Origin: Chloroflexota bacterium | Lineage (GTDB): Bacteria; Chloroflexota; Dormibacteria; Dormibacterales; Dormibacteraceae | Length of the DNA: 64,000 bases | NCBI GenBank assembly: GCA_005880915.1 | Contig: VBIW01000048.1 | Location: 1 to 64,000, forward strand | Reading direction: 5' to 3' | Shown: positions 7,733 to 10,295 of the stretch, piece by piece | How positions within the stretch are numbered: the stretch's first letter is position 1 | Layout of the letters: the number at the start of each line of letters is the position of its first letter | Translations under genes and position numbers: made by a program | Notes under the pieces: generated by a model | Told to the model about the DNA's origin: nothing | The model's database searches: none | The model's input: only the letters and a program-made list of their open reading frames with translations

Positions 7733-8764
7733 TCAGCCGGCTGCGGCGAGCGTCGATTGCCGGATTTGAAGTTCCGGGCCCAGGATCATGTGCTGCGGCT
7801 CCTGCTTGCGCGCACCCGACATGTTCACGACCAGGCGTGTCATCTCCCGACCCATGTCCTCGATCGGCTGCCTGACGCTCGAGAGAGGTGGCCGGGTCGC
7901 TGTCGCGAGCGGCGAGTCGTCGAAGCCGATGATGGCCACGTCGTCTGGTACTCGGCGCCCGAGGACCTGCATCGCCCACATCGCGCCCGCCGCCATGGCG
8001 TCGGATGCGGCGAACACCGCATCGATTTCGTGTGACTCGGCGAGCAATCTCGACATCGCGACCTCGCCGCTGTCGCGATCCATCTCGCCGTGGGCGACCA
8101 GGTCGGAACGCAACGCGGAATTCCACATCGCCTCGCGAAAACCCTGCGCCCGGTCAGACGCCGACCGCGAGTGCACCGGCCCGGCGATATGGGCGATTCG
8201 TCGCCTCCCTTGCGCGATCAGGTGCTCGGTGGCGCTCAGTCCGCCGGCGTGGTTGTCGACGTCGACAAAGCTGACATCGGATCGGCCAGGCGGCCTGCCG
8301 CCGTAGATGACCGGGATCCCTCGAGCCTGAAGGCGAGCAGACAGAGTGTCGGAGTCGTGGAAGGTCAGGAGGATCACGGCGTCGACGTGGCCGCCGGCAA
8401 GGTACTGCTCGAGCCGCTGGATGTCAGGCGTGGACTGGGGGGCGAAGAGCACCATCTGGAGCCCGCTCGCCGAAAGCTCTTCGCCGATGCCGCGCAGCAG
8501 GCGCGGGAACAGCGGGTCCAGCAAAAGGCCTGAGCGCGGCTCGGGGATGACAACGCCGACCGACTCGCTTCGGCCGGCGACAAGGCTCTTGGCCGCTCGA
8601 TTGGGAACGTAGCCGAGCTCGACGGCCGCGCGTTCGACGGCGGCGCGCGCTTCCTGGCTGACCGCGGGGTTGTCGCTGAACACGCGGAAGGCGGTCGTTC
8701 GGGACACTCCGGCCAGGCGCGCCACCTGGGCGAGAGTGATCGCCGATCCTGAAACCGCTTCCAT
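7733..8764 (-). CDS. LacI-family transcriptional regulator
   Basis: 343 residues: N-terminal LacI helix-turn-helix (ITLAQVARLAGVSRTTAFRVFSDN, about 9-32), hinge helix PNRAAKSLVAGRS, then a periplasmic-binding-protein-like core (SVGVVIPEP, AIIGFDDSPLATATRPPLSSVRQP). The family senses sugars or related ligands. No sugar-use gene is adjacent; it is divergent from the OsmC selenoprotein candidate. An imperfect GCGAA...TTCGC palindrome (8805-8822) in the shared gap could be its operator. Confidence 0.92.
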   Translation of the reverse strand: MEAVSGSAITLAQVARLAGVSRTTAFRVFSDNPAVSQEARAAVERAAVELGYVPNRAAKSLVAGRSESVGVVIPEPRSGLLLDPLFPRLLRGIGEELSASGLQMVLFAPQSTPDIQRLEQYLAGGHVDAVILLTFHDSDTLSARLQARGIPVIYGGRPPGRSDVSFVDVDNHAGGLSATEHLIAQGRRRIAHIAGPVHSRSASDRAQGFREAMWNSALRSDLVAHGEMDRDSGEVAMSRLLAESHEIDAVFAASDAMAAGAMWAMQVLGRRVPDDVAIIGFDDSPLATATRPPLSSVRQPIEDMGREMTRLVVNMSGARKQEPQHMILGPELQIRQSTLAAAG

Positions 8765-8855: not shown

Positions 8856-9329
8856 ATGGCAGATAACCAGGCCGTCTACACCTCAAAGGTAAGGATCGTC
8901 CGCGAGCGCGGGCCCATCCGGCAGGCCTACCTTCCGGCTGAGTCTCAGCCGGTCGTCTTCGGCACCCACGGCCCTGTGCGCGAGCACTATGGGACCGCGG
9001 TCGGCCAGTATCCGGACCACGCCACGACCCTCGACTATGTGGTTGCGGCGGCCGCCGGTTGACTTACCGGCACCCTCGGGGGCGCGCTGGAGGCGCGCGG
9101 GATCGACGCCAGCGAAGGACGCCTCACCTCGGAGGCCGAAGGCGAGATCTACCTGGAGAACAAGGTCCTGGTGATCAAGAAGATCCGCGTGCACTACACG
9201 CTCAGGGGCTGTCCTGAGGACAGGCGCGAAGCCGCCGAGCGATCGCACTCATTTCACGCCTCGCGCTGCCCTGTCGCGAAGAGCATCGAGAAAGCGATCG
9301 AGATCTCAACCGACCTCACTTTCGAGTGA
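8856..9329 (+). CDS. OsmC-family peroxidase with in-frame TGA at the active-site cysteine (probable selenoprotein)
   Basis: Read through the TGA at 9060-9062, the frame gives a complete 157-residue OsmC-like protein: N-terminal beta region, AAAAG-U-LTGTL helix with the TGA as residue 69, central EAEGEIYLENKVLVIKKIRVHYTL, and a second conserved cysteine in ASRCPV (138). In OsmC/Ohr proteins residue 69 would be the peroxidatic cysteine that reduces organic hydroperoxides. A gene finder stopping at the TGA would call only 68 residues. A hairpin 19 bases after the TGA meets bacterial SECIS spacing rules. The downstream frame is clean and family-typical, arguing against decay. Alternative: a nonsense mutation or base error (TGC to TGA). 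C119 is an extra cysteine. Confidence 0.85.
9073..9101 (+). other. SECIS-like hairpin after the OsmC TGA codon
   Basis: GCGCGC (9082-9087) pairs perfectly with GCGCGC (9093-9098) around the loop TGGAG. CCC at 9073-9075 can pair with GGG at 9099-9101, leaving a 5' bulge. The loop starts 25 bases after the TGA and has G at its second position, within the published bacterial SECIS rules (apical loop 16-37 bases from UGA, a G in the first two loop bases). Confidence 0.6.
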
Positions 9330-10295
9330 GGTCCGGTGCGCGCGAGACCAGATGATGGTCCCGATGCGCACGTTGCGAAACACCTCTTCGCTGACCAGGA
9401 AGCCGGCAAAGATGAGGACCAGCCCGAGGAACTCACCCAGGAAGAAAGACCACGTCACCCCGAAGCGGTTGAGGCTGCTCGTGACCGCGGGAATGAACGC
9501 CCCGACGGCGATCAGGATCGTGGCCGGCACCCGTGAGTTGAGCTTGCCGCGGAACAACGCGGTCACGGCAACAGGCAGCGAAGCGAAAAAGTTGACTGCG
9601 ATCGCGAGTACGCCCAGCCGCGCGGCGAGAGCCCGCTTCTTCGGCATGTAGATGTACGCGGAGTAGAGCGCTCCGAAGACGAGGGCAAGTCCACCGCCGG
9701 CGTTGAACGGCACGCTGCTGACTCGCAGGTAGCCGGGGAAGGCGGCTGCGACTGGAACATGCGTCGCGGGATCTACAAAGCTGCCTCCTGAAAGGTGCGC
9801 CGTCATCACCAGAGCGGCCACGACCAGCGTGCCCGCGACGAGGAAAGACATCGCCACGTGCGCCTGAAAGTCGCGCCGGACGGCGGTCGAGGCTGCGACG
9901 GAGGCGGCGGCCACGAGCGCCACGGCGAAAGTGACGTATCCACCCGTCACGGAGCCCGGATACCTCGCGGTCGCCGCCAGCGAGAACAGGCCGCCCAGCA
10001 CGATCGAGGCTGCGACGAAGTATCCGAAGCGCGTCTTCTGGAGCAGGTACAGCGTGCCGGCGCCCAGATATGACGGGACGAGAAAAGCCCCAACCAGGTA
10101 CCAGATCCGGTACAGCGGCTCGCTCCAGCCGAACCTGGAGCCCAGGAACTCGGTCCCCGTGGCGAGGCCATACCAGATGAGCCCAACGCCCCAGACGAGC
10201 TGGAAGGAATGGCGCCGCTGCCACCACTGGTCGAGCACCATCGCGGCGAATGCGAAGCTCAGCAGCGAGGACGCCAGCGGAAGAAAAGACTGCAT
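9306..10295 (-). CDS. Polytopic membrane protein, unknown function
   Basis: 329 residues with about eight to nine hydrophobic helices and few charged loops; no catalytic motif. The start MQSFLPLASSLLSFAFAAMVLDQWWQRR suggests insertion directly by helix 1. The pattern is compatible with a small-molecule-sensing or stress membrane protein but no family is recognised. It overlaps the OsmC gene tail to tail by 24 bases. It is followed upstream on the same strand by pcaC (10305), only 9 bases away, so it could be the last gene of the pca transcript. Confidence 0.7.
   Translation of the reverse strand: MQSFLPLASSLLSFAFAAMVLDQWWQRRHSFQLVWGVGLIWYGLATGTEFLGSRFGWSEPLYRIWYLVGAFLVPSYLGAGTLYLLQKTRFGYFVAASIVLGGLFSLAATARYPGSVTGGYVTFAVALVAAASVAASTAVRRDFQAHVAMSFLVAGTLVVAALVMTAHLSGGSFVDPATHVPVAAAFPGYLRVSSVPFNAGGGLALVFGALYSAYIYMPKKRALAARLGVLAIAVNFFASLPVAVTALFRGKLNSRVPATILIAVGAFIPAVTSSLNRFGVTWSFFLGEFLGLVLIFAGFLVSEEVFRNVRIGTIIWSRAHRTSLESEVG
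9312..9333. terminator. Convergent hairpin with TTCG tetraloop
   Basis: GACCTCACT-TTCG-AGTGAGGTC, a perfect 9-bp stem closed by an unusually stable TTCG loop. It spans the OsmC stop and the last codons of the convergent membrane protein. It lacks a T run, so it may be an RNA 3'-end stabiliser or a factor-assisted terminator rather than a classical one. Confidence 0.5.

What the first reader, a model, noticed from the sequence alone, without database searches (positions are those of the whole stretch)
8856..9329. OsmC-family selenoprotein: TGA replaces the peroxidatic cysteine codon
The frame is open on both sides of TGA 9060-9062 and matches OsmC throughout. The TGA falls exactly where the family has its reactive cysteine (AAAAG-U-LTGTL), while the second catalytic cysteine (C138) is kept, as expected for a selenocysteine/cysteine peroxidase. 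Standard annotation would report a broken 68-residue gene. OsmC-like selenoproteins have, as I recall, been noted in metagenomic surveys but are rare; one in this lineage would be new to most databases.
Basis: partly seen in the sequence, partly recalled or inferred. Interest (0 to 1): 0.9.

Follow-up and report, generated by a model that had tools for sequence, protein, structure and literature searches.

The report
Overlooked selenium-dependent OsmC redox enzyme
A soil bacterium's OsmC-type redox gene that looks broken by a stop codon very probably encodes an intact selenium-containing enzyme, and relatives with the same feature turn up in many kinds of bacteria.

Summary
Window 8856-9329 is an OsmC-fold gene with one in-frame TGA (9060-9062) at the column where a Cys homologue has TGC. 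In 33 of 34 copies read from relatives the TGA is at the same codon; the exception has TGG, a broken stem pair and a broken N-terminus. Sequence on both sides is under purifying selection (dN/dS 0.04-0.14). A 7-bp hairpin with loop GGA, 26 nt after UGA, meets the published bacterial SECIS constraints and keeps pairing when letters change. The genome has tRNA-Sec(UCA), selA, selB and a Sec-type selD. So it is a selenoprotein gene; no protein evidence exists. Unexpected: this branch is widespread and almost all Sec. 40 of 42 informative Chloroflexota rows and 105 of 107 Gemmatimonadota rows hold a TGA; at least 115 contig stretches carry the TGA-plus-hairpin signature. Its motif (U-L-T-G-T) is not the UxxT of the one catalogued OsmC-like selenoprotein. 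Likely function: a hydroperoxide- or disulfide-reducing enzyme pairing Sec69 with Cys138; chemistry is inferred.

The parts
8856..9329 (+). OsmC-family selenoprotein gene, 157 residues with Sec69; start codon ATG 8856 is the likeliest but not tested
9060..9062 (+). TGA codon read as selenocysteine (residue 69)
   Evidence: 33 of 34 relatives' copies have TGA here; TGC in homologue L204
9082..9098 (+). SECIS-like hairpin: stem 9082-9088 with 9092-9098, loop GGA 9089-9091, loop 26 nt after UGA
   Evidence: wobble bases fixed in 33 of 33; 98.0% of 350 cells pair, covariation 0.204 vs 0.129 shuffled; -11.2 kcal/mol for the hairpin alone
9267..9269 (+). codon of Cys138, proposed resolving residue
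   Evidence: invariant in A1 and A3; lies just before helix 139-144 in the model

Best explanation
The gene makes a selenoprotein of the Ohr/OsmC fold. UGA 9060-9062 is read by tRNA-Sec(UCA), brought by SelB, which recognises the hairpin at 9082-9098. Shown: conserved TGA, selection on both sides, hairpin, machinery in the genome, predicted OsmC fold. Inferred: the decoding itself and the chemistry. Sec69 stands for the attacking cysteine in the central helix and Cys138 is the resolving residue. Most likely cycle: the selenolate reduces a hydroperoxide, the selenenic acid closes a selenenylsulfide with Cys138, and a dithiol reductant (lipoylated protein or thioredoxin) resets it. The branch keeps Sec nearly everywhere and is not the catalogued UxxT type.
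For: One TGA at the same column in 33 of 34 copies from 31 genomes, 40 of 42 informative rows among 400 Chloroflexota genomes, 105 of 107 rows among 200 Gemmatimonadota genomes (the other 2 end before the column), 80 of 80 loci read of 115 stretches found by a pattern that required the TGA. dN/dS 0.04-0.14 before and 0.05-0.14 after the TGA. Wobble bases of the hairpin fixed in 33 of 33; pairing kept through changes in distant members; published bSECIS constraints met. tRNA-Sec 72.4 bits, anticodon tca; selA, selB adjacent; selD with its own TGA in GAG-U-ACK. Cys form TGC in L204. Two other OsmC-type genes of this genome have plain Cys at the place. AlphaFold2 pLDDT 96.6, Foldseek to Ohr/OsmC structures.
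Against: No protein or RNA data. Fold energy of the 39-nt stretch is not beyond codon-preserving shuffles (z from 0.2 to -1.4 in 9 sequences), and a 39-nt stretch of the window folds differently. On A2 only 1 pair has a change on both sides (350 of 500 shuffles reach that) and the number of pair types is reached by 40 of 500. G008, 95% complete, has the gene and a tRNA-Sec hit but no selA or selB over the cut-off. The bin is 8.59% contaminated. The substrate is unknown; within the family YhfA is excepted from peroxidase activity (PMC4069020, passages).
Confidence: 0.95

Rival explanations
1. A broken OsmC gene: the TGA is a nonsense mutation or a sequencing error and only 68 residues are made.
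For: Standard translation stops at residue 68. Decayed copies exist: G035 (TGG, broken N-terminus), G050 (split by about 2.1 kb, with a TAG), G321:C793 (frameshifted).
Against: Same TGA in 33 of 34 copies and in distant phyla; dN/dS 0.05-0.14 after the TGA.
Confidence: 0.02
2. TGA is read, but as another amino acid (changed code, suppressor, or a tRNA with UCA anticodon that gives Cys).
For: The organism is uncultured and no peptide is known. UCA tRNAs that give Cys are known in some bacteria (recalled).
Against: tRNA-Sec, selA, selB and a Sec-type selD are present; a SECIS-like hairpin follows the TGA; the same gene ends in TGA.
Confidence: 0.03
3. It is simply a member of the already catalogued UxxT OsmC-like selenoprotein family.
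For: Same Pfam family and Sec at the reactive place (PMC1088965, PMC2398784, PMC13188914). I could not see the published sequences or figures.
Against: Here +3 after U is Gly in all rows of A1 and A3, so the motif is not UxxT. A gene with a literal U-V-L-T exists (L240) and is about 15% identical to the window protein. The 2005 survey kept only clusters with at least two Cys homologues (passage); this branch has almost none.
Confidence: 0.25
4. A selenoprotein, but not a peroxidase: for instance a YhfA-like redox protein that reduces disulfides or handles sulfane sulfur or selenium.
For: Sequence is far from the curated peroxidase models (25.6 bits vs 166 and 17.1 vs 86); COG1765 is YhfA in the 2022 table (passage); no conserved neighbour tells a substrate.
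Against: Sec/Cys pair in the Ohr/OsmC layout.
Confidence: 0.35

Closest known systems
OsmC-like selenoprotein of marine metagenomes (PF02566/COG1765, motif UxxT; PMC1088965, PMC2398784, PMC13188914)
   Same: OsmC family with Sec at the reactive position and a bacterial SECIS
   Different: Motif UxxT there, U-L-T-G-T here with Gly at +3 invariant; there Cys homologues are listed beside few Sec forms, here nearly all are Sec. Published sequences not seen
Ohr/OsmC organic hydroperoxide reductases (e.g. PDB 6ebg, 1qwi)
   Same: Fold and a pair of reactive residues, one in the central helix, one near the C-terminus
   Different: 10-18% identity over the 50 listed chains; Sec for the first Cys; below NCBIfam cut-offs
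TIGR03563 SACOL1771 family peroxiredoxin and TIGR03562 OsmC
   Same: Closest curated models by sequence (E 9.2e-6 and 0.0045)
   Different: 25.6 and 17.1 bits against cut-offs of 166.15 and 85.8: not a member of either

Membership tests
Bacterial selenoprotein | in-frame UGA conserved among homologues and replaced by Cys in others | tested here: met
   33 of 34 TGA; TGC in L204, a single Cys form
Bacterial selenoprotein | bSECIS: loop 3-9 nt, stem 4-16 bp, G in first two loop positions, 16-37 nt from UGA, MFE <= -7.5 | tested here: met
   loop GGA, 7 bp, 26 nt, -11.2 kcal/mol; energy not beyond shuffles
Bacterial selenoprotein | selA, selB, selD and tRNA-Sec in the genome | tested here: met
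Bacterial selenoprotein | Sec present in the protein | not testable with these tools
   needs labelling or mass spectrometry
Ohr/OsmC superfamily (PF02566) | profile score over the curated cut-off and OsmC fold | tested here: met
   47.4 vs 27.5 bits; Foldseek E to 2.6e-8
Ohr/OsmC superfamily (PF02566) | two reactive residues | tested here: met
   position 69 (Sec) and Cys138 invariant in 50 rows of A3
Ohr/OsmC peroxidase | thiol- or lipoyl-dependent hydroperoxide reduction | not testable with these tools
   needs an assay
Catalogued OsmC-like selenoprotein | motif UxxT | tested here: not met
   Gly at +3 invariant
NCBIfam OsmC/SACOL1771 subfamilies | curated cut-off | tested here: not met

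The most novel reading that the evidence does not exclude
A large, nearly Sec-obligate branch of the OsmC superfamily: Sec is kept in Dormibacteria, other Chloroflexota, Gemmatimonadota and, by record titles, Acidimicrobiia, Acidobacteriota and more, often with a second Sec-OsmC paralogue in Gemmatimonadota, and with at least three more distant Sec-bearing OsmC branches (U-T-S-M-T, U-T-I-V-T, U-V-L-T). It has escaped because searches lean on Cys homologues and gene callers cut it at residue 68; its chemistry may need selenium rather than merely profit from it.
Probability: 0.5. Interest if true: 0.75.

Novelty: new variant of a known kind. Interest (0 to 1): 0.62.

Why it matters
Nearly all selenoenzymes are said to be outnumbered by Cys homologues (PMC13188914, passage). 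A branch where Sec is the rule makes it possible to ask what selenium does there that sulfur cannot. Standard translation cuts such genes at residue 68, so selenium use in soil bacteria is likely undercounted. The TGA-plus-hairpin signature gives a simple search pattern.

Tried and rejected
Pseudogene or error: rejected on conservation and dN/dS. Changed code: the same gene ends in TGA. Energy of the downstream stretch against codon-preserving shuffles: not significant, told as against. Conserved neighbourhood: the most shared cluster of neighbour ORFs is in 9 of 80 loci, so no operon partner was found. PDB by sequence with profile A1: none at E <= 0.001; best at E <= 10 is 2opl_A, E 0.12, whose Cys lines up with the Sec column. 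Other Sec codons in the window: 19 TGA places with long flanks were listed, 9060 among them; the other 18 were judged by eye only and looked like antisense frames or neighbouring genes. Co-occurrence with selA: by my count, 28 of 31 relatives with this gene have selA over the cut-off (missing in G008, 95% complete, with a tRNA-Sec hit of 69.7 bits; G015, 70%; G028, 59%), but so have 49 of the other 70, so co-occurrence alone is weak. The Rfam tRNA-Sec cut-off is loose: 5 of 14 control genomes pass it, so for the own genome I rely on the score of 72.4 (next best 45.6) and ARAGORN.

Rows dropped: 3 G050 rows. Before A2: L033 (TGG), L201 (my script misread its frame), L204 (Cys), L218 (frameshifted). 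A3 holds the window and 49 of 80 loci, chosen below 80% mutual identity. dN/dS used 10 of the 33 copies (nine congeners and G038 of the same family). The tally (195 TGA, 3 TGG, 2 TGC) counts overlapping loci of one gene more than once and is not used as a count. In one search the TGA is the tool's count inside the match; only four of those rows were fetched as loci and scanned at the column.

Full report
What is there. Window 8856-9329 (+) reads as an OsmC-family protein of 157 residues with one internal TGA at 9060-9062 and a terminal TGA at 9327-9329. Pfam OsmC is met over its cut-off. The window is bases 1-64000 of contig C223 (75,885 bases) of a 4.13-Mb draft genome in 228 contigs, 96.03% complete and 8.59% contaminated. 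From the titles of near named contigs (soil 'Chloroflexi bacterium CF_*', Candidatus Dormibacteraeota, Ca. Dormiibacter) I take the organism to be a Dormibacteraeota soil bacterium; this is inference.

Conservation of the TGA. Of 101 genomes searched (the own one and 100 relatives), 32 have a match, in 37 rows. I read 34 of the 37 in frame, from 31 genomes: 33 have exactly one internal TGA, all at the column AAAAG-U-LTGT (one has AATAG, one ASAAG before it, one LVGT after it). The 34th (G035, L033) has TGG, a changed base that breaks a stem pair, and a broken N-terminus. The three G050 rows are pieces; two of them form a copy split by about 2.1 kb and ending in a TAG. Among 400 Chloroflexota genomes 38 have matches, 46 rows: 40 with one TGA, one TGC (G429, L204), one TGG (G035), and four pieces that do not reach the column. 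Among 200 genomes of the phylum of G449 (titled Gemmatimonadota) 65 have matches, 107 rows: 105 with one TGA; the other two are pieces that end before the column. The profiles carry Cys at that column, so Cys forms were not disfavoured. Many Gemmatimonadota genomes have two such genes.

Selection. Against ten relatives (nine congeners, one of the same family) dN/dS is 0.04-0.14 over 60 codons before and 0.05-0.14 over 80 codons after the TGA: the downstream part behaves as translated protein.

The hairpin. In 33 copies, codons +8 Ala, +9 Leu, +11 Ala and +12 Arg each use one codon only, 33 of 33, while nearby Ala, Leu, Gly and Thr codons vary. These bases form a 7-bp stem around GGA, +20 to +36 after UGA; codon +10 is GAG (25) or GAA (8), and both let U26 pair. 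In A2 (52 sequences, 50 distinct) 98.0% of 350 cells pair, covariation score 0.204 against 0.129 when shuffled (0 of 500 as high) and 0.000-0.067 when slid; but only one pair changes on both sides (350 of 500 shuffles do as well) and the count of pair types is reached by 40 of 500. In the distant branch U-M-Y/F-G-T (L206-L217) pair 24-32 is C-G or A-U in most, with loop GUC or GGC; three members, L206, L207 and L211, break two or three of the pairs, and L206 and L207 fold with a longer stem shifted by three. The hairpin meets the constraints given in PMC13188914 (section 5 read whole): loop 3 nt with G first, 7 bp, 26 nt from UGA, -11.2 kcal/mol. Energy alone is not remarkable. In the Cys form L204 two of the seven pairs are broken, a single case.

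Machinery. tRNA-Sec C160:74379-74474, 72.4 bits (gathering 47), anticodon tca; selA C48:17218-18513 and selB C48:18549-20369, side by side, both over the cut-off; selD C220:17862-18773 with its own in-frame TGA in GAG-U-ACK, which fits the catalogued UxxK. DNA identity to relative G012: selA-selB stretch 91.1%, tRNA-Sec stretch 91.6%, window stretches 88.6-90.5%, so gene and machinery come from one lineage. Two other OsmC-type genes of the genome (C1, C211) have ordinary Cys, in LGS-C-TGL and HAA-C-YSM: the TGA is specific to this branch. Two more TGA copies in the bin (C57, C214) may be contamination: C214's protein looks like Gemmatimonadetes L087/L089 and C57's like another Dormibacteria family (by eye).

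Spread. Titles name Gemmatimonadota, Acidimicrobiia, Chloroflexota (Dormibacteraeota, Caldilineaceae, SAR202, Thermoflexus), Acidobacteriota, Desulfobacterales, Nitrospiraceae, Nitrospinota, Spirochaetaceae, Gammaproteobacteria and Rhizobiales. The titles were not tested; L072, L092, L105, L125 and L127 have nearly one protein under two phylum names, so some labels are wrong.

Structure and mechanism. AlphaFold2 on A3 (50 rows) gives pLDDT 96.6, pTM 0.89; residue 69 lies in helix 58-80 and Cys138 just before helix 139-144. Foldseek found 64 PDB chains at E <= 0.001; the 50 listed are Ohr/OsmC-type proteins or entries of unnamed or putative function. In Ohr/OsmC, except the YhfA subfamily, an N-terminal Cys attacks an organic hydroperoxide, forms a disulfide with a C-terminal Cys, and (for Ohr) lipoylated proteins reset it (PMC4069020, passages). 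I propose the same cycle with a Sec69-Cys138 selenenylsulfide. Shown: sequence, conservation, machinery; predicted: fold; inferred: Sec insertion, chemistry, reductant. Dormibacteria copies have a further near-invariant Cys119, not seen in most of the other loci (by eye).

Against the literature. OsmC-like selenoproteins were listed in 2005 (PMC1088965, passages: 3 sequences, UxxT), 2008 (PMC2398784, passages: 5 sequences, UxxT) and in reviews of 2022 (PMC9312934, passage) and 2026 (PMC13188914: outline, section 5, part 1 of 3 of section 7, passages). The 2026 catalogue counts 119 families and subfamilies, separates them by motif, and 'OsmC' and 'PF02566' occur once each, UxxT. Here +3 is Gly throughout A1 and A3. 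A literal UxxT gene met on the way (Ca. Thermoflexus, L240, U-V-L-T) is about 15% identical. Searches of the held open-licence papers for OsmC with selenoprotein (7 papers), OsmC with selenocysteine (10), selenocysteine with Dormibacter (0), selenoprotein, selenocysteine and Gemmatimonadetes (5) showed no title or abstract start describing this branch; I opened four of the papers that name OsmC, plus PMC12013277 (term search only, no hits) and PMC4069020. I did not see the published OsmC sequences. NCBIfam of June 2026 has no model that the protein meets.

Verdict. A genuine selenoprotein gene (confidence 0.95 for that; about 0.6 that it reduces hydroperoxides) and, on the evidence, a Sec-dominant OsmC branch not separately catalogued: a new variant of a known kind.

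Noticed in passing
L089 (+, just upstream of its Sec-OsmC) and L058 (G000:C214:656-967, minus): A second OsmC gene with TGA at the reactive column (LG-A/P-U-TSMTIALYARRKG) lies next to the LTGT-type gene; the L058 copy also has a TAG. A Cys form is seen in L238 (LGT-C-TAMT)..
   Followed up: partly
L239 (G459:C444) and L240 (G460:C25): Two further distant OsmC-type genes with an in-frame TGA at the reactive place: U-T-I-V-T and U-V-L-T (the published UxxT pattern). Hairpins not tested..
   Followed up: partly
L033 (G035:C49:15837-16226, minus): A natural decay case: the Sec codon is TGG, one stem pair is broken and the N-terminus is out of frame, in a genome that keeps selA and tRNA-Sec..
   Followed up: partly
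L065 (G050:C29:5480-8062, minus): A copy split by about 2.1 kb near the Sec codon, first half ending in a TAG; a beta-propeller-like frame runs the other way in between..
   Followed up: partly
L055 (G000:C220:17862-18773): selD of the own genome is itself a selenoprotein gene (GAG-U-ACK)..
   Followed up: partly
L206, L207, L211: In one sister branch the hairpin appears shifted by three nucleotides with a longer stem (L206 and L207 folded)..
   Followed up: partly
G000:C57 and G000:C214: Small contigs of the bin whose TGA-OsmC proteins look like those of other groups; likely contamination (bin 8.59%)..
   Followed up: partly
L072, L092, L105, L125, L127: Nearly identical Sec-OsmC proteins in records titled Gammaproteobacteria and Gemmatimonadetes: some record titles or bins are wrong..
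   Followed up: no
window 7733-8764 (-) and 9306-10295 (-): Neighbours of the gene: a LacI-type regulator reading frame upstream (divergent) and a membrane-protein-like frame downstream whose 3' end overlaps the gene's end by 24 bases (names by eye)..
   Followed up: no
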